Below, one piece after another: positions 1 to 13,571 of a DNA stretch of 64,000 nt. The position numbers and the translations under genes were made by a program. Numbering within the stretch: the stretch's first letter is position 1; each line of letters starts with the position of its first letter. Under the pieces are notes generated by a model. It did not search any database and had not been told where the DNA came from. It saw only the letters and a program-made list of their open reading frames with translations. Source of the DNA: an uncultured Oscillospiraceae bacterium (GTDB lineage: Bacteria > Bacillota > Clostridia > Oscillospirales > Oscillospiraceae); assembly GCA_947629245.1 (NCBI GenBank), contig CANRDC010000002.1, positions 62,001-126,000 on the forward strand. Direction: 5' to 3'.

Positions 1-339
1 GCCGAGGAACTCGACGTCTCCGACCAGAACATCAAGGTATTGTGCCCGGATGGTGAGTACCATTGCGTCCTCAAGTTATTCAGAACAATTCCCATGGCTG
101 TATGGAGGCTCTCCACTATCACCGGGAGAACCATACGTGCCTCGAGGAAGCATCTATTAGTAGGCAAGTTCGGATTCCTGCACTACCTTTACGAATACGG
201 CGTAGGTGACGAGGTATTGACCGAGGACGGCTACGAGAAGATCCTGAGCTGTAGGTCTGACGGCGAAGAAGAGCTCTATGATATGGAGGTGGACAGCGAG
301 GACCACCTCTACTACACCGACGGCTTCGTATCCCACAAC
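1..339 (+). other. Intein C-terminal portion in terminase P-loop
   Basis: Protein-splicing element. A block B-like stretch (TITGRTIRASRKH, containing the conserved His) and C-terminal blocks F/G (DSEDHLYYTDGFVSHN followed by Ser) are visible. The HN/S junction at 339/340 is canonical for Asn cyclisation followed by a Ser nucleophile. No LAGLIDADG or HNH endonuclease is present in the visible part, and block B to block G are only about 90 residues apart, so this looks like a mini-intein. Block A, with the first Cys or Ser, is outside the window. Confidence 0.88.
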
Positions 340-1869
340 TCCACCACCTTCGCTGCCCGGCAGATGATGTATGCCAATCTGATGACCGGGTATAGATCGC
401 TTTATGTGGCGCCGCATCATACACATTTGGAGACCTATCAGAATAGGTACTCAGAAATGGAGGCGTTATGGAGAAAGCCATTAGGTCACCAATTAAAGGG
501 ACATAAAGAATACGGGAGGTCTGTGGTTGAGATGATTTACTGTGGGGAAAATTCCTTGAATGCTCGCGGTAAGACAGTTGACGAGGTACTCATCGACGAG
601 GTGCAGTCATTTGATCCGACCTTGTTGGAAGATGTTCTTTACACCCAGACGACGTCCAGAATGCCGACAACTATTTATGCCGGGACAGCCATGAGCATTG
701 ACACCCTTCTGGAGGCGAAGTGGCAGGACTCATCGATGGGAGTATGGATGGTGAAATCACCTGACGGGAAGCATTGGCTTAACTTCTACGACGCTAACAC
801 GCTCTTTGCCATATGTTCCGATGCCCGTGGTCCCATTTGCCCGTATACGAAGAAATTGCTCGATGTGACCAAGGGCTTCTTCGTGCACGGCAATATGAAG
901 GCATATAACGAGGGGCGCATAGGAATCCACGTCCCGCAGTGCATTATTACTGACCTCACTAACAACCCCATCCAGTGGGGAAAGATCTACCAGAAGGTGA
1001 AGCGTACTGACCCCAACAAGGTCATGCAGGAGTGCTTTGGGATTGCTGTAGCCACAGGCGCCCGAGAAATCACCCAGCGAGACCTGCAGCGCATCTGCAC
1101 GCTTGATGCCGACGAGGACACCATCAAGGACAGGTGTAAGCGTGGGTACTATCGTTTGGTCGTCTCCGGCTGCGACTGGGGCGGATCTGACTACAACACA
1201 GCCACCAAAACCAAACAGTCCTACACGGTCCACTGCATCTTAGGCCTTGCCCCGGATGGTACGACAGACATCCTGCATTACTACCGCTATTCCGGGATGG
1301 ACTACGAGAGCATCGCCAACTCCATCATCCGTGACCACTACGAATACAAGGGGCAGCTCATTGCTACAGATTTCGGCGTAGGCGCGGTGTATAACATGCA
1401 GATACGAAAGAAGATCCCCTTTGACCAGCATTTCATCATGACCTATGTGGGGCCGAAGTCTGCACCGCTCGCCGAGCCAAAGGGACCACACCTGCCTAAC
1501 CAGCTCTCTTTGAACAAAACCGAAGCTATATCCGCTGTATTCTCTGACGTGAAGTTCCTGACCCCGCAGAAGATCCGCTGTCGAAAGTGGGAGGATATGA
1601 AGGACTACCTATTGGACTGGCTCAACCTATTCCGTGCCCCGGTTGAGAACGAATCCGGTGAAACCAAGTTCAAGTACATACGGGCTGCCACAAAGCCGGA
1701 CGATGCATTGCATGCGTTTACATTTGCCTACGTACTTATCAAATTCTTCATAGGCGAGCCGATAGTCAATGACCCGACACTGCAAGCGCGCCTGAGAGAG
1801 ATCATGGCACACCCGGATGAGATTAAGACACCGAGGATCGATATCTCCCAATACTTTGTATCAGGTTGA
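1..1869 (+). CDS. Terminase large subunit, intein-interrupted (5' end outside window)
   Basis: ATPase-nuclease motor that packages DNA into the prohead. The frame is open to the left edge, so the TTG start in the ORF track at 40 is not the real start. The first 113 residues in view are the C-terminal part of an intein. The extein resumes with STTFAARQ, which is what follows GK in a Walker A loop, so the intein sits inside the P-loop. Walker B is VLIDEVQSFD. The RNase H-like nuclease acidic residues are visible in CDWGGSD, IATDFG and PDDALHAF. The N-terminal extein and intein block A lie before base 1. The stop overlaps the next start (TGATG), so the downstream glycosyltransferase is probably translationally coupled. 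Terminase identity is certain from the motifs; the intein insertion point is inferred from the visible half only. Confidence 0.93.
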   Translation, partial: AEELDVSDQNIKVLCPDGEYHCVLKLFRTIPMAVWRLSTITGRTIRASRKHLLVGKFGFLHYLYEYGVGDEVLTEDGYEKILSCRSDGEEELYDMEVDSEDHLYYTDGFVSHNSTTFAARQMMYANLMTGYRSLYVAPHHTHLETYQNRYSEMEALWRKPLGHQLKGHKEYGRSVVEMIYCGENSLNARGKTVDEVLIDEVQSFDPTLLEDVLYTQTTSRMPTTIYAGTAMSIDTLLEAKWQDSSMGVWMVKSPDGKHWLNFYDANTLFAICSDARGPICPYTKKLLDVTKGFFVHGNMKAYNEGRIGIHVPQCIITDLTNNPIQWGKIYQKVKRTDPNKVMQECFGIAVATGAREITQRDLQRICTLDADEDTIKDRCKRGYYRLVVSGCDWGGSDYNTATKTKQSYTVHCILGLAPDGTTDILHYYRYSGMDYESIANSIIRDHYEYKGQLIATDFGVGAVYNMQIRKKIPFDQHFIMTYVGPKSAPLAEPKGPHLPNQLSLNKTEAISAVFSDVKFLTPQKIRCRKWEDMKDYLLDWLNLFRAPVENESGETKFKYIRAATKPDDALHAFTFAYVLIKFFIGEPIVNDPTLQARLREIMAHPDEIKTPRIDISQYFVSG

Positions 1870-2540
1870 TGAATAGTGTTTACCAGTGTTGGGTAGGGAG
1901 ACGTCCTATGCCTGCGGAAGAGCGAAAGTGGTCGTTGGGCATTAAATGGGCGGCACTGGATGCCGGGTACAGGTATAAGTTATTTGACAATACCGCCTGG
2001 GAACAGGAAGCTAAGCATGACAACGTTTTTATGGCGTTATTGTATTGTTACAGGCTGTACCCGTCAAACAAGATACCAGGAGCTGTTTCTGATTGGTTGC
2101 GTGTAAAACGAATGAAGGAAAGTGGAGCGGATTCGGCATGGTATTTTGACACTGATGTGAGCGTAGTGTCTACTATGCCTACCATGGAAACGATGAATGC
2201 CTTAGGTGACGCCGTTATGTTTTCGGAATCCAACCCATGGTTAGCCTGGGGATGCATTTATAAATCTGCCAACGAGAACTCAATCCCTTTCTGGACGAGG
2301 CTATATGACAGGCTGGAGGAACATTATTTGACTAGGTTTGGAGAAGTAAAGACGGAGAGCGAGGCGGATAGAGCAGTGAATTCCTCATCTCAGTTTGCGG
2401 TTGTGGTTGACGAATGTAAGAAGGTGAACTACAGTAGACTAGGCAGAATGCCTTTCAGCATTATTGACTACGGCTGCCGCAAGTATTCTGGACCGACACA
2501 TTTTATCCATCATAACAGAGGGCAATGGAAAATAAAATAA
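1869..2540 (+). CDS. Glycosyltransferase with DXD sugar-binding motif
   Basis: Predicted nucleotide-sugar-dependent glycosyltransferase (223 aa), GT-A fold of the Gly_transf_sug/OCH1-like type. It begins with MNSVYQCWVG, like the 'HQIWLG' opening of this family, and carries the metal/sugar-nucleotide motif in WYFDTDVSVV near residue 95 preceded by the usual DWLRVKRMKESG helix. The ATG at 1869 overlaps the terminase stop; the ORF-track TTG three bases earlier is unlikely. The 3' end overlaps the methyltransferase gene by 16 nt. The acceptor is unknown. Its place in a structural operon suggests modification of a virion or host-surface glycan (inference). Confidence 0.75.
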   Translation: MNSVYQCWVGRRPMPAEERKWSLGIKWAALDAGYRYKLFDNTAWEQEAKHDNVFMALLYCYRLYPSNKIPGAVSDWLRVKRMKESGADSAWYFDTDVSVVSTMPTMETMNALGDAVMFSESNPWLAWGCIYKSANENSIPFWTRLYDRLEEHYLTRFGEVKTESEADRAVNSSSQFAVVVDECKKVNYSRLGRMPFSIIDYGCRKYSGPTHFIHHNRGQWKIK

Positions 2541-3379
2541 CAAACAACATCGAGCTGGTGGGTATATCCAGGACCACGGCTGGCATCATTGACAGCCTGG
2601 ACCCGGAATGGAAGAAGTACAGCATCATGATGCCAAGCGAGCGCATGTTCCTGGCAGAGATGGTACGGAGAGTCCAACCGAGAACTATGGTAGAGATCGG
2701 CACCTACGGAGGAGGAGGAAGTACGATTATGCTTCAATCTTCTATCGAATGTGAAGGACGTTTGGCATCTGTTGACATAAGCCGGGTATGCTATGATAAA
2801 AGGAACATACCTTGCGGGTATGCACTCACCATGTTCCCGGAGCTCAAGGAACGCTGGCAAGGATATTTCGGGCACAGGGTGTCGGCTTATGTGAATGATA
2901 TTGTTAATGGGCAGTTTGACGGCAACACGATAGATTTCGTATGCTTAGATTCCCAGCACCAGTATCCAGGAGAGATGCTGGATTTTATCTGCGTGTTTCC
3001 CTATCTGAGTCCGAATGCTACAATCGTGATGCATGATGCTGCACTGGAGCCGCTCAATGTTCACTTGTTTTCTATATTACATGGTAAGAAGTATCTACCA
3101 GCGCAGCAGGAGTTCCCGGAAGCCGGAAAGGTGGCCGACAGGCGGATATTGGAAAGCGGGCAAGGCACGCTACGTACGCTGATTCCTAATATAGGAGCTG
3201 TTACACTGGATGATACACAGCGGGATCACATGTATGATCTGTTCCACATGCTGTGGAACAAGTGGCGTCTAAAGCTGCCGTCAGATGAGGTGCAAACCAT
3301 TACTGAGAACTTGTGTAAAAACTATGACAACTACCTTGTACAGATGTGGAGCAAGATTCTGACCTACCAAGGTCACTAA
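2525..3379 (+). CDS. Class I SAM-dependent methyltransferase (Methyltransf_24-like)
   Basis: Predicted S-adenosylmethionine-dependent O-methyltransferase, 284 aa. Motif I is VEIGTYGGGGSTIML near residue 57, followed by an acidic residue in ASVDIS and by FVCLDSQHQYPGEMLDF, where families of this kind bind the substrate or metal. VMHDA follows at the end of the next strand. Such enzymes sit in sugar and glycan biosynthesis clusters and modify sugars or rhamnosyl groups. The gene overlaps the preceding glycosyltransferase by 16 nt and is followed by a second glycosyltransferase, so methylation of a transferred sugar is a reasonable inference. The substrate cannot be read from sequence. Confidence 0.72.
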   Translation: MENKITNNIELVGISRTTAGIIDSLDPEWKKYSIMMPSERMFLAEMVRRVQPRTMVEIGTYGGGGSTIMLQSSIECEGRLASVDISRVCYDKRNIPCGYALTMFPELKERWQGYFGHRVSAYVNDIVNGQFDGNTIDFVCLDSQHQYPGEMLDFICVFPYLSPNATIVMHDAALEPLNVHLFSILHGKKYLPAQQEFPEAGKVADRRILESGQGTLRTLIPNIGAVTLDDTQRDHMYDLFHMLWNKWRLKLPSDEVQTITENLCKNYDNYLVQMWSKILTYQGH

Positions 3380-3403
3380 ATATAGAGGCTTGTTACTTTT
3401 TTC

Positions 3404-3432
3404 TTGCGCCCCAAAGAAATGCACGATAATAT
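3404..3432 (+). promoter_or_regulatory. Sigma70-type promoter, leaderless
   Basis: TTGCGC, 17 nt, TAATAT, then ACGCCC and the ATG at 3439. The 6-nt distance from the -10 element to the start codon puts transcription start at or next to the A of ATG. Confidence 0.6.
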
Positions 3433-3438
3433 ACGCCC

Positions 3439-4893
3439 ATGGATACACCGGACTTCATTGTACACCAGATTTGGCTGGGCGGCGAATTGCCGAAGAATGC
3501 TAAGAAACTTGTTGAAAAAGCTTACAAGACCTGCGGCAAGTCAGGCTATGAATATAGGATTTGGTATCTGAAGGACATCCTCCAAACATTCAACATCGAC
3601 TATTCCTACTACTTCTGGCGCCGCCTCTTTACCCAATTCCCCATTGCCCCGGTAATGTCGGCGGCTGTAGATTACTACAAGTGGAAGATATTGGCGGCTA
3701 CACCGGAGGAGCAGAATGCCATCTATATCGACTGCGACGTCGAGATGATGCGTAAGCCCAAGACGGATTACGTCATTCCCAAGACGCAGGCGCATATATC
3801 GTTTGGTAGTGCTGAGCAATACGGAACGCCGGATGTATCCTATATCCAGGTCCATGGACCAAAGGCTGCTAGTGTAGCCTTGCAGCAAGCGGATGAGAAG
3901 CTGCTTCAGTTTGGCATGGATTCGCCTCACTTCATTGAGAATTTTGTCAAACTGGTAGCTAATGGCAAGAAAGACAGCAGGCTCTCTTTGGGAACAGATT
4001 GGATTTTGAAGGAACTTTTGCCAGCCTATGAGAAAGCGGAAATAGCTGCTGAAGTAGCGGCACAGGATGTATACTGCTATTACGGTCAGACTGCTAAGCA
4101 GCTCATGATCAACAAGTCGCTGCACTTGTCGACAGAAGGTGCAGTTGATGAGGAAGCAATCGCCGCCTATGCCAAGGAAAAGATCCAGCAGGCAAAGGCA
4201 GCCGAAGACGAATTCAACAAGACCAAAAAGCACGTCGTGATCTACATGTCATCTGCCCGGGAGTATGACGCTAACCTGGACAGGACATTGGGGCTGATCA
4301 CGGCAGCGGATATACGCAATGTCCAGCGTGGGACGACATTTGAAGAACTGTCACCTAATGTCGATTACTCATTCGTCGTAGGAGGTACGACCAATGACGG
4401 GCACGTAGACGATGGGGCCACTGACATTTTCTATGCCAGCTATCCTGAAGGAAGGGATCACCAGGCGCAGAGGTTTTACCAGGCGCTGAAGTGGAGTGTC
4501 AAGGCTGACATATTTGAGAACATCTTCTTCTGCGAGGATGACAACTACGTGAGTGTCAACCGATTGCTTAAGTATTGCAATGCCAAGATGCCGGATGAGA
4601 TGGTGTGCATCGCAGCCAACAAGGACGGGCATCCTGACGCGAAGGGAGGCATCCTCATTACAGCAGCTCTAGCACGTAAGATCGTACTGACTGACCCGGA
4701 TGAGCCACGAGAAGGAGAATCGTTCGGAGATTGGATTTACCATTGTCTTGAGCTGGTGGATGCCAAATTTGAACCGGAGCAGAAGTTTGCTTCCAACAAG
4801 AACCAATATCCGTCGCCGACGAATGCGCGCATAACAACGCATGAGTGCAATCCGTATGATCTAGTTGCTTTGCACCGACTCAACAAGGCTTGA
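3439..4893 (+). CDS. Two-domain glycosyltransferase (DXD-type plus GT31-like)
   Basis: 484 aa with two apparent catalytic modules. Residues 1-250 open with FIVHQIWLGGELPKN and carry AIYIDCDVEMM, the DXD motif of the Gly_transf_sug family. An Ala/Lys/Glu-rich linker at about 225-265 leads to a second module (265-484) that resembles GT31 (Fringe/beta-1,3-galactosyltransferase): a Gln-Arg-Phe helix, then FFCEDDNYVSVNRLLKY, where DD-x-YV-N matches the GT31 metal-binding site. The gene has its own promoter with a start codon at the predicted +1. A two-module enzyme could add two successive sugars (inference). It may share ancestry with the minus-strand enzyme at 59663, which has the same opening. 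Confidence 0.78.
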   Translation: MDTPDFIVHQIWLGGELPKNAKKLVEKAYKTCGKSGYEYRIWYLKDILQTFNIDYSYYFWRRLFTQFPIAPVMSAAVDYYKWKILAATPEEQNAIYIDCDVEMMRKPKTDYVIPKTQAHISFGSAEQYGTPDVSYIQVHGPKAASVALQQADEKLLQFGMDSPHFIENFVKLVANGKKDSRLSLGTDWILKELLPAYEKAEIAAEVAAQDVYCYYGQTAKQLMINKSLHLSTEGAVDEEAIAAYAKEKIQQAKAAEDEFNKTKKHVVIYMSSAREYDANLDRTLGLITAADIRNVQRGTTFEELSPNVDYSFVVGGTTNDGHVDDGATDIFYASYPEGRDHQAQRFYQALKWSVKADIFENIFFCEDDNYVSVNRLLKYCNAKMPDEMVCIAANKDGHPDAKGGILITAALARKIVLTDPDEPREGESFGDWIYHCLELVDAKFEPEQKFASNKNQYPSPTNARITTHECNPYDLVALHRLNKA

Positions 4894-9732: not shown

Positions 9733-10359
9733 ATGGCAGATAAATACAACGTTCCTGACAACTTCTCGGCTTTTGAGGTCACCCACGGGATCTTCATTTC
9801 CGCTGGCCCCCAAGGCCTTACTGTTCAGCAAAAAGAACTTCTCTTCCCGGCACAGGGTGAGCTTCGTTTTGTTGGGGTCGTGACGGATGTTCCCTACAAG
9901 GCAACGGTAGATGAAGGTGCTACGGCGTGGCTCTCCTTCCAGTCTGTTTCTGAAGGTCTGAACATCATCACTGCTCCTAATGGTACGAAGGCAGATCGCG
10001 AGGGTAAGATTACTGTGACACCGATCATTGCAGGTAAGGAGACCGAAGAGAAGAAAGTAGAAATCACTGTGAAGCAGAGCAAGCACAGCTCTCTTAACTT
10101 TACTGTATCCCCCAGTGTTGTATCTGTAGAAGCGACTGGGAAGACAGTGGACCTCGATGTACTGACCCAAAAGGCCTATACGGTGTTCTCCGGTTCTTCC
10201 TGGTGCCGTGTGACTCCGACCTTTGGTAACACTACCGAACAAGCCAAGCTTGAAATTGACAAGAACACCTCGAAATCTGCTCGTACCGCGCAACTTACCT
10301 ATCGTTGTGGGGCGAAGCAAGTCAAGGTAGACGTCACGCAAGCCGGAGCTGAGGACTAA
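9733..10359 (+). CDS. Tandem BACON-like (Ig-fold) domain protein
   Basis: 208 aa, probably a virion surface or decoration protein. The second half (about residues 120-205) has the BACON pattern: FTVSPSVVSVEATGKTVDLD, then GSSWCRVTP, a TTEQAKLEIDKN-like strand with conserved Asn, SARTAQLTYRCG and a final VDVTQAG. The first half (about 35-115) shows a weaker copy, ending in VEITVKQS. BACON domains are typical of Bacteroidota surface proteins and occur on crAss-like phages. The gene has its own promoter and no membrane segment or signal peptide. The overlapping 69-aa ORF at 9674 lies across the promoter and was dropped. Confidence 0.66.
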   Translation: MADKYNVPDNFSAFEVTHGIFISAGPQGLTVQQKELLFPAQGELRFVGVVTDVPYKATVDEGATAWLSFQSVSEGLNIITAPNGTKADREGKITVTPIIAGKETEEKKVEITVKQSKHSSLNFTVSPSVVSVEATGKTVDLDVLTQKAYTVFSGSSWCRVTPTFGNTTEQAKLEIDKNTSKSARTAQLTYRCGAKQVKVDVTQAGAED

Positions 10360-10377
10360 TAATCATCTAGTTTTACT

Positions 10378-11303: not shown

Positions 11304-13571
11304 ATGAAAGCGATCTCCCTGCTGATCAATTCCTACCTCCCGGAGGACCTGAGGAATTACTCTGAGACGTACGACGTCAAGAGCATGAACAAAATCATGC
11401 ACGCCGTAGCGGAGAAGCACCCCGACAAGTTTGCCGAGATCACGAAGAAAATATCCGACCTCGGTAGAACTGCTTCTTATGTGCAGGGAGAGACGATCAC
11501 GCTGGATGACTTGGAGCCCGTGATCGACAAGGATAAAGTATTGGGAGATATGCAGGCCGAGATCAAGGCTCTGCCAAAGGACGAGAATTTCAAGCAGAGG
11601 AGACGAGAGATCTTCCAGAAGTACACCAACCTCATTGAGAAAACCACAGCGGATAATGCGCTAAAGAACAGGAACAACATAGCATTGTCCGTGATGTCCG
11701 GGGCACGTGGTAAGATGCCCCAACTGCGAGCCATGATCTCCCCGGTAGGAACATTCTCCGACTACAAGGGCGAGGTAATTGACGTGTACTCCAAGGAGTC
11801 ATTTGCTGACGGGATTCGACCGACAACATTTCTTGCGTCTACATACGGAAGTCGTTCAGCAGTAACTTCTACGAAAGTGGGCACGGCTAAAGGCGGCGAC
11901 CTCGCCAAGCAGTTTGCTTCATCTGCCGCCGATATGATTATCCGTAAGGAGGATTGTGGTACCAACAATGGCATAGCCCTTGACCCGGACGACCCATCCC
12001 TCAAAGGTCGCGTACTTGCCCAGGACGTAGATGGATTCAAGGCAGGCTCCTTTATTACTAGGGAGATGATGGCAACCCTCAAGAATGCCGGACACAAGTA
12101 TATCATGGCAAGATCTCCTATCACCTGTGGCTGTTCCGGCGGGCTCTGTGCCAAGTGTGTCGGCAAGATGTATAAGGGAGGAAAGTTGCCAAAAGTAGGG
12201 GATGCCGTAGGGCTCACGGCATCATCGACGACCATGGAACCAGTCACTCAGATGGCGCTCTGTCTCGTAGCCGGGACTAAGGTGAGACTTGCATCCGGTG
12301 GTTCCAAGTCTATCGAGAAGCTCAAGGTAGGTGATATGGTTGTGTCTGTGGATACAGATGGCAATATGACGCCAACGCCGGTACTGGATATCTTCACCAA
12401 CAAGAACGCCTTTGTCAGGGATTATTCCATAGAGGGGCCAGCAGGCAGATTCAAGGTAACTTGCTCCGAGAAGCACGAATTTCTCTCGTATGACGAAGAA
12501 GATTGTGTCGAGAATGAGAAGCGTCCCATACACATGTGCTACGTGAGCGGACTCCCTGTAGCGGTCATTAAGGACGACGGGCTCACGTGGTGTAAGATAG
12601 CAAAGGCCTCACGCGTCACCATGCAGACGGCTTACGACATCGAGATCGGTACATCGTCGCACCTTTTCCTCCTCTCCAATGGTCTTGTTACATCCAACTC
12701 CGCCAAGCATACGGCAGGCATGACCCAGGGTAAGAAGACCTATTCGGGGCTCGCCGTCATCCAGCAGTTCACCCAATCCCCCGAGAAGTTCAAGGATATC
12801 GGCGTTGTATCGGAGCTGGATGGCAAGGTCGAGAACATCGAAGAAGCTCCGCAGGGCGGCACCTATGTTACCGTAGGAGGAGAGAAGCACTACATCCCGG
12901 CCGGACATGAGGTCCAAGTGAAGCTTGGACAAGTTGTAGAAGCCGGGGACCAACTGGCCGAAGGATTGGTGGATGCGGAGGACATCGTACGTCTTAAGGG
13001 ATTGGGAGCCGGACGCAAGTACTACGCGGAACGTCTCAACAAGATCCTGGAGGACTCCGGGGCTAAGACAGACAAGCGGAATACTGAAATTCTAGCTAGA
13101 GCCGCTATTCGTCACGTCCGCATCAGCAACACCAATGGAATTGGCAACTATCTCCCGGATGATCTCGTAGACTATAGTGCCCTGCAAAGCACGTACAATC
13201 CGCCTGATGCTGTTCACAAGGCCACGAAGGAATCCATTGGAGGGTATTTAGCTAAACCGGCCATGCACTACACCGTAGGGACGCGTATCACGCCGAATGT
13301 GGCTAAGGACTTGGAGGAGCACCAATTTACCGACATTGATGTAACCCAACACGAGCCTGAGTTCACACCGGAGATGGTACGACTGAGAACAGCCTCTCAC
13401 ACGAACCCGGACTGGCTTGCATCGATGACAACTTCTTATCTCTCGCAGCAGCTCAATGAGTCTTCTACCAGGGGAGATGATACAAACGTGCTGGTCAACC
13501 CTGATTATCGTCCGAGAATTATGTACGGTGAAGGATTCGCCAAGAACGTAGGGGAGCAAGGTGTTTTCTAA
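11304..13571 (+). CDS. RNA polymerase beta' subunit, C-terminal half, with mini-intein
   Basis: 755 aa (about 609 after splicing), corresponding to the C-terminal half of bacterial RpoC. Residues 1-125 match the region before the bridge helix (DLGRTASYVQGETITLDDL). NNIALSVMSGARGKMPQLR is the bridge-helix NPIYxMxxSGARGSxxQxRQ. The trigger-loop region (SFADGIRPTTFLASTYGSR) is followed by KEDCGT, the Zn site CGCSGGLCAKC and GDAVGLTASSTTMEPVTQMAL. The C-terminal part has GDQLAEG, Y-x-x-RLN and an LPDDLVD that aligns with LPGE. The catalytic NADFDGD loop is absent and must be on another gene, as in phiKZ-like split polymerases. Its location among virion genes suggests a virion-packaged polymerase (inference). 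Confidence 0.88.
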   Translation: MKAISLLINSYLPEDLRNYSETYDVKSMNKIMHAVAEKHPDKFAEITKKISDLGRTASYVQGETITLDDLEPVIDKDKVLGDMQAEIKALPKDENFKQRRREIFQKYTNLIEKTTADNALKNRNNIALSVMSGARGKMPQLRAMISPVGTFSDYKGEVIDVYSKESFADGIRPTTFLASTYGSRSAVTSTKVGTAKGGDLAKQFASSAADMIIRKEDCGTNNGIALDPDDPSLKGRVLAQDVDGFKAGSFITREMMATLKNAGHKYIMARSPITCGCSGGLCAKCVGKMYKGGKLPKVGDAVGLTASSTTMEPVTQMALCLVAGTKVRLASGGSKSIEKLKVGDMVVSVDTDGNMTPTPVLDIFTNKNAFVRDYSIEGPAGRFKVTCSEKHEFLSYDEEDCVENEKRPIHMCYVSGLPVAVIKDDGLTWCKIAKASRVTMQTAYDIEIGTSSHLFLLSNGLVTSNSAKHTAGMTQGKKTYSGLAVIQQFTQSPEKFKDIGVVSELDGKVENIEEAPQGGTYVTVGGEKHYIPAGHEVQVKLGQVVEAGDQLAEGLVDAEDIVRLKGLGAGRKYYAERLNKILEDSGAKTDKRNTEILARAAIRHVRISNTNGIGNYLPDDLVDYSALQSTYNPPDAVHKATKESIGGYLAKPAMHYTVGTRITPNVAKDLEEHQFTDIDVTQHEPEFTPEMVRLRTASHTNPDWLASMTTSYLSQQLNESSTRGDDTNVLVNPDYRPRIMYGEGFAKNVGEQGVF
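12261..12698 (+). other. Mini-intein in RNA polymerase beta'
   Basis: 146 residues from CLVAGTKVRLASGG (block A, Cys1) to LVTSN followed by Ser (block G). Block B is FKVTCSEKHEFL with the T-x-x-H-like His. Block F is AYDIEIGTSSHLFLLSNG. No homing endonuclease is present. The penultimate residue is Ser where most inteins have His, so splicing may use another His or be slower. It interrupts the extein between EPVTQMAL and SAKHTAGM, the most conserved point of this part of beta'. Confidence 0.88.

What the first reader, a model, noticed from the sequence alone, without database searches (positions are those of the whole stretch)
1..339. Mini-intein inside the terminase ATP-binding loop
The extein resumes at STT right where Walker A GK|ST would be, so the intein splits the P-loop and packaging depends on splicing. 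This could act as a control point for packaging. The N-terminal half lies before the window, so a split intein is also possible.
Basis: partly seen in the sequence, partly recalled or inferred. Interest (0 to 1): 0.6.

Follow-up and report, generated by a model that had tools for sequence, protein, structure and literature searches.

The report
Split packaging motor gene, trans-spliced
A large bacterial virus encodes its essential DNA-packaging motor as two genes about 84,000 bases apart on opposite strands, each carrying half of a self-splicing protein (a split intein) that should join the two halves exactly inside the motor's ATP-binding loop; an isolated Vibrio phage shows the same unusual layout.

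Summary
Window 1-339 encodes the C-terminal part of an intein ending SHN, followed directly by a terminase large subunit (TerL) resuming at STT. Upstream sequence shows a 120-aa C-intein starting at its own ATG 20 bases before the window, behind a glycosyltransferase-like ORF, so there is no N-extein in cis. The missing half is on contig C12 of the same assembly: an ORF ending ...ASRQIGK|CISGDTKVTV... with a 40-aa N-intein. C12 joins the window's contig through a unique 77-bp overlap inside an RNA-polymerase gene. The halves are thus ~84 kb apart on opposite strands of a phage genome of at least 179 kb. Joining them restores RQIGK-STT and raises the PHROG TerL score from 74 to 90 bits. This is an atypically split class-1 intein like AceL/GOS-TerL and VidaL. 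In a search of 50,697 phages the N-half hit one record, Vibrio phage vB_VmeM-32; its TerL proved to be split the same way, halves ~79 kb apart on opposite strands, with gp16-gp17-gp18 synteny broken at the intein. Trans-splicing is inferred, not shown. A regulatory role is unsupported.

The parts
1..339 (+). C-intein, residues 8-120 of 120. Residues 1-7 lie just before the window (start ATG at C2:61980). The N-half is outside the window: C12:8991-9488 minus strand, N-intein C12:8994-9113.
   Evidence: TIGR01443 over cut-off; VidaL 6vgv E 1.4e-7; coordinates
130..162 (+). Block B region, TIRASRKHLLV; His58 at 151-153, Ser55 in place of the usual Thr
   Evidence: Alignment with Kuja, EP75, VmeM-32 and Atu_ph07 inteins; assignment by inspection
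271..315 (+). Block F region, ELYDMEVDSEDHLYY; Asp101 at 280-282, His109 at 304-306
   Evidence: Alignment; TIGR01443
316..339 (+). Block G, TDGFVSHN; penultimate His119 and terminal Asn120, followed by Ser+1 at 340-342
   Evidence: Sequence, alignment
340..1869 (+). C-extein: TerL from Walker A Ser (STTFAARQ) through ATPase and nuclease regions, 509 aa plus stop
   Evidence: phrog_675 74.3 bits alone, 90.4 bits after joining the N-extein, profile 56-545 of 576
586..600 (+). Walker B-like VLIDE of TerL
   Evidence: Sequence; assignment by inspection

Best explanation
The window begins inside the C-half of a naturally split, class-1 intein inserted at the Walker A GK|ST junction of a phage TerL. 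The N-half (TerL N-terminus ending ASRQIGK plus a 40-aa N-intein) is a separate gene at C12:8991-9488, minus strand, about 84 kb away on the opposite strand of the same phage genome. Likely mechanism: the two proteins are made separately, the intein halves associate and fold, Cys1 attacks the Lys-Cys junction, the N-extein moves to Ser+1, Asn120 cyclises, and TerL is released with an intact SRQIGKSTT loop. Shown by sequence: both halves, their conserved blocks, the split site, the restored motif and the contig link. Inferred: expression, association, splicing, and that packaging depends on it. The distant layout most likely arose by genome rearrangement after the intein had become split.
For: C-intein starts at its own ATG, no N-extein in frame. 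N-half is the only RQxGKC hit in the assembly and stops 40 residues after Cys1. Joined TerL scores 90.4 bits with phrog_675 against 74.3 for the C-half and gains phrog_2 at 3.6e-13; Arash TerL 126 against 114 bits. N-half tblastn against 50,697 phages: one record, the TerL N-half of vB_VmeM-32 (E 7e-3). C2 and C12 share a unique 77-bp end overlap inside a 703-codon ORF whose parts match successive segments of an Arash RNA polymerase gene. Same dispersed layout in the isolate vB_VmeM-32, whose relative CC2 keeps gp16-gp17-gp18 together. Adjacent split TerL in Atu_ph07.
Against: No expression or splicing data. Draft metagenomic-type assembly; the link C2-C12 rests on one overlap plus homology. 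The RQxGKC motif alone is weak (the reversed control pattern also gave one hit). The N-half has no hit to N-intein model TIGR01445 and its N-extein is only weakly like other TerL N-termini. Block B has Ser instead of Thr.
Confidence: 0.9

Rival explanations
1. Same split intein, but kept as a deliberate switch: the halves are expressed under different control so that packaging starts only when both are present.
For: The N-half has a promoter-like TTGCCT-16-TATACT just before an ATG, and the C-half lies in a plus-strand gene series overlapping the gene before it. Unspliced TerL should not bind ATP (inference).
Against: Promoter-like matches in that region are hardly above shuffles (5 against mean 3.4). 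No expression data. Neutral rearrangement explains the layout equally well, as in vB_VmeM-32.
Confidence: 0.1
2. The split is an assembly artefact: the TerL gene with a contiguous intein was broken and joined to foreign sequence.
For: The assembly is a draft (146 contigs, 87% complete), and both TerL parts are on different contigs.
Against: Each half ends at a gene boundary: a stop 40 aa after Cys1 with an HU-like gene 13 bases on, and a start codon at the head of the C-intein overlapping the gene before it. Both breaks lie deep inside contigs, and the split falls between intein blocks. vB_VmeM-32, sequenced by PacBio, has the same arrangement.
Confidence: 0.04
3. The two halves do not splice: the intein is dead, and TerL works as two non-covalent parts or is non-functional.
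For: Variant block B (Ser for Thr) and no functional data; other genes of this phage (RNA polymerase) appear in separate pieces without intein halves.
Against: Cys1, block B His, block F Asp and His, penultimate His, terminal Asn and Ser+1 are all kept, and both ORFs are open. The break lies inside the P-loop, where an unjoined protein could hardly bind ATP (inference).
Confidence: 0.06

Closest known systems
AceL-TerL and GOS-TerL split inteins (Thiel 2014; Bachmann 2015; cited in PMC13014065)
   Same: Naturally split TerL inteins with a short N-intein (AceL 25 aa), split after the first helix (S2)
   Different: N-intein here is 40 aa; halves ~84 kb apart on opposite strands; the genomic layout of AceL and GOS halves could not be checked (papers not held)
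VidaL split intein (6vgv)
   Same: Best solved relative of the C-intein, E 1.4e-7; short N-intein
   Different: VidaL is split at S1 with a 16-aa N-intein (PMC13014065); 24-character-level extein context differs; VidaL matches UvsX-type inteins such as PA5oct more closely by eye
Vibrio phage vB_VmeM-32 TerL (KU160494.1)
   Same: Split intein at Walker A, N-intein 34 aa, C-intein 118 aa, halves ~79 kb apart on opposite strands
   Different: T4-like phage; has a second, contiguous intein at Walker B; neither noted by its authors
Agrobacterium phage Atu_ph07 TerL and PA5oct UvsX split inteins
   Same: Short N-intein gene and separate C-intein gene, same type of split
   Different: Halves adjacent (Atu_ph07) or separated by one ORF (PA5oct), same strand; Atu_ph07 uses Ser1
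Contiguous TerL inteins at or next to Walker A (Vibrio phage Kuja, Kutterviruses such as EP75, Campylobacter phages)
   Same: Same host gene, same site for Kuja and EP75; C-intein 42% identical to Kuja over 79 aa
   Different: One reading frame; Campylobacter CP20 insertion is 3 residues earlier
Split DnaE intein of cyanobacteria (Wu 1998)
   Same: An essential enzyme made from two distant genes by trans-splicing (distance from my own knowledge)
   Different: Cellular, canonical split with long N-intein and short C-intein, DNA polymerase

Membership tests
Class 1 intein | Nucleophile Cys/Ser/Thr at position 1 with block A | tested here: met
   N-half CISGDTKVTV; aligned with VmeM-32, EP75, CP20 N-inteins above shuffles
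Class 1 intein | Block B TxxH | tested here: inconclusive
   His58 kept, Thr replaced by Ser (SRKH); Kuja also lacks the Thr
Class 1 intein | Blocks F and G with penultimate His, terminal Asn, +1 Cys/Ser/Thr | tested here: met
   DHLYYTDGFVSHN|S; TIGR01443 over cut-off
Naturally split intein | Two separate genes, each an extein part plus one intein part | tested here: met
   C2:61980-63869 plus strand and C12:8991-9488 minus strand
Naturally split intein | Trans-splicing activity | not testable with these tools
   Needs co-expression or mass spectrometry
Atypically split intein (short N-intein, S1/S2) | N-intein of 15-37 aa, split near the N-terminus | tested here: met
   N-intein 40 aa, slightly above the reported range, C-intein 120 aa; split before the region holding blocks B-G
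Fractured gene with free-standing homing endonuclease (Dassa 2009) | Homing endonuclease ORF between the halves | tested here: not met
   Neighbours are a glycosyltransferase-like ORF, and an HU-like protein (PF00216, 59 bits); halves not adjacent
Mini-intein (contiguous) | N-extein and block A in the same frame | tested here: not met
   Own start codon, closed frame upstream
Phage terminase large subunit | TerL family match with Walker A restored on joining | tested here: met
   phrog_675 90.4 bits, phrog_2 3.6e-13 for the joined protein

The most novel reading that the evidence does not exclude
Split inteins act as safe breakpoints in phage genomes: once TerL carries one, inversions or other rearrangements can move the halves of an essential gene tens of kilobases apart without loss of function, and this has happened at the same Walker A site in at least two distantly related phage lineages, leaving a motor protein that can only be assembled by trans-splicing.
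Probability: 0.45. Interest if true: 0.7.

Novelty: new variant of a known kind. Interest (0 to 1): 0.6.

Why it matters
An essential, highly conserved phage gene appears to be scattered across the genome and rebuilt at the protein level. It suggests a testable route by which genes-in-pieces arise: a break inside an intein, then rearrangement; an isolated phage, vB_VmeM-32, allows a direct test. Split inteins with short N-inteins are rare and valued as protein-joining tools, and this adds two native TerL pairs. It also warns that annotation and TerL-based surveys will truncate or miss such genes.

Tried and rejected
Contiguous mini-intein: rejected, no N-extein or block A in frame upstream. 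N-half on the window's own contig: scans of all six frames of C2 for GK plus Cys/Ser and block A, and for RQ.GK, gave nothing convincing. The second phrog_675 hit (C56) is not the missing half: it spans the junction position. Close relatives of the C-half in IMG/VR, GTDB contigs and 59 related genomes: none; N-half in IMG/VR: none. N-intein model TIGR01445: no hit on C12. N-extein against those of Kuja and Atu_ph07: chance level; its support comes from Arash, VmeM-32 and the gain on joining. Promoter differences: too weak. No tRNA genes found on C2 or C12. Key papers (Dassa 2009, Bachmann 2015, Wu 1998) are not held.

Full report
What is in the window. Bases 1-339 read in frame into a terminase large subunit (TerL) ORF that ends at 1869. 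The first part ends ...EEELYDMEVDSEDHLYYTDGFVSHN, an intein C-terminus (TIGR01443, 21.6 bits, cut-off 15.6). The part after it matches TerL family phrog_675 from profile position 69 onwards (E 1.2e-20).

What lies before it. The window is G000:C2:62001-126000 of a 136,400-bp contig. The ORF starts at C2:61980 (MLKSNEIAEELDV...). The stop-to-stop frame holds only 13 more codons (642 against 629), and the ORF overlaps the end of a glycosyltransferase-like ORF by 17 bases. So there is a 120-aa C-intein with its own start, and no N-extein or block A in frame.

The missing half. Scans of all six frames of C2 gave no convincing candidate. A degenerate pattern for RQxGKC gave one hit in the 3.08-Mb assembly, on contig C12 (the reversed control pattern also gave one, so the motif alone is weak evidence). 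It lies in an ORF at C12:8991-9488, minus strand, that ends ...NGSITIAASRQIGK|CISGDTKVTVCIEEEEPKKTTCKELFSMARKKIACTHENK and stops. This is a TerL N-terminus up to the Walker A lysine followed by a 40-aa N-intein with block A. Joined to the window's C-extein it gives ...SRQIGKSTT..., a complete P-loop.

Support for the pairing. The joined TerL scores 90.4 bits with phrog_675 (C-half alone 74.3), gains phrog_2 (3.6e-13), and aligns to Salmonella phage Arash TerL with 126 instead of 114 bits. tblastn of the N-half against 50,697 phage records, allowing E up to 10, found one record: the TerL N-half of Vibrio phage vB_VmeM-32 (48.6% over 36 aa, E 7e-3). The N-intein scores against those of VmeM-32, EP75 and CP20 as well as or better than all but at most 2 of 5000 shuffles, but not against Kuja.

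Same genome. C12 bases 1-77 are identical to the last 77 bases of C2; the overlap is exactly 77 bp and is found nowhere else in the assembly. A 703-codon minus-strand ORF runs across the joint, and its two parts match successive segments of the Arash RNA polymerase gene. GC is 0.499 in both contigs. The joined stretch is 178,920 bp, close to Arash at 180,819 bp. In it the two TerL genes start 83.8 kb apart on opposite strands. The other two contig ends have no partner, so the genome may be longer. In all, 11 C2 ORFs match Arash, among them those at its portal, capsid, TerL, sigma factor and RNA polymerase genes, so C2 and C12 are phage DNA.

A second case. In the isolated, PacBio-sequenced Vibrio phage vB_VmeM-32 (PMC6483233) the annotated TerL (1102-3216, plus strand) starts with a C-intein. 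Its N-half, VmeM32_00107 (79947-80624, minus strand), ends SRQLGK|CVTGDTKITV... with a 34-aa N-intein. In its relative Aeromonas phage CC2 the order gp15-gp16-ORF-gp17-gp18 is unbroken and gp17 is one ORF. In VmeM-32 gp15-gp16-ORF-gp17N stay together, while gp17C-gp18 lie ~79 kb away on the other strand. The synteny break coincides with the intein, as an inversion would leave it. The paper on that phage does not contain the word intein. Adjacent split versions exist in Agrobacterium phage Atu_ph07 (TerL), and one with an ORF between the halves in PA5oct (UvsX). Contiguous versions sit at the same site in Kuja and the Kuttervirus EP75; related TerL inteins are found in some 300 phage records.

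How it most likely works. Two separately made proteins meet through their intein halves. The folded intein (Cys1, block B His, block F Asp and His, His119-Asn120, Ser+1) transfers the N-extein to Ser+1 and excises itself, restoring Walker A. Since neither half has a complete ATP-binding loop, packaging should require splicing; this step is inference. A timed control of packaging is possible but unsupported: the promoter-like site before the N-half is hardly above expectation for the region.

Comparison with the known. Naturally split inteins with short N-inteins (15-37 aa) include AceL-TerL (25 aa) and GOS-TerL, split at S2, and VidaL (16 aa, S1) (PMC13014065). The best solved relative of this C-intein is VidaL. 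[quoted passage not shown] So the intein type and site are known. Distant, opposite-strand halves in a phage do not appear in the papers I could search, but Dassa 2009 and Bachmann 2015 are not held, and Thiel 2014 was seen only as a citation. Distant genes for a split intein are known in cyanobacterial DnaE (own knowledge).

Limits. No expression or splicing data; a draft assembly; one overlap joins the contigs; the start of the N-half is uncertain (M1 or M20 of the 165-aa ORF); block B has Ser for Thr. No relative of this phage was found that would show the gene before the split.

Noticed in passing
window 12261-12698, inside ORF 11304-13571: A second, contiguous 146-aa intein in an RNA polymerase beta'-like protein, between EPVTQMAL and SAKHTAG; C-terminus ends TSN rather than HN (TIGR01443 17.7 bits; Pfam Hint 2.7e-6).
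   Followed up: partly
G000:C2:16174-16599, outside the window: A probable 142-aa intein in an RNA polymerase beta-like ORF, between VEGPE and SERAGID, ending TGN; weak matches to TIGR01445, supported by PHROG intein-bearing families. Three inteins in one phage.
   Followed up: partly
G000:C2:14501-16755, C2/C12 joint, C12:2927-6391: The RNA polymerase beta gene is in at least four pieces matching successive parts of one Arash gene; no intein halves seen at those breaks.
   Followed up: no
KU160494.1 (L018), TerL ORF 1102-3216: vB_VmeM-32 TerL carries a second, contiguous intein at Walker B (YVDE|CVSGDT...ESHN|CAFIE) in addition to the split one.
   Followed up: partly
C12:9457-9521 and 10298-10362: A 65-bp near-repeat (88%) with promoter-like hexamers and a start codon close behind, once before the TerL N-half and once before a very short ORF.
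   Followed up: partly
C12:30343-31863 and C2:5829-6384: Segments 85-87% identical between the contigs around a transposase/TnpB-like ORF (MDRTHKIKLYPTKQQEQILAGW...) on C12; the C2 copy lacks most of the ORF.
   Followed up: no
G000:C2:56474-66893 (window 1-4893 and upstream): TerL sits among glycosyltransferase-like ORFs with a methyltransferase (Methyltransf_24) two genes downstream, unusual neighbours for a terminase.
   Followed up: no
OZ195729.1 (L015): Vibrio phage D69 TerL is annotated from MQVGKS, so its N-terminus before Walker A is missing from the annotation.
   Followed up: no
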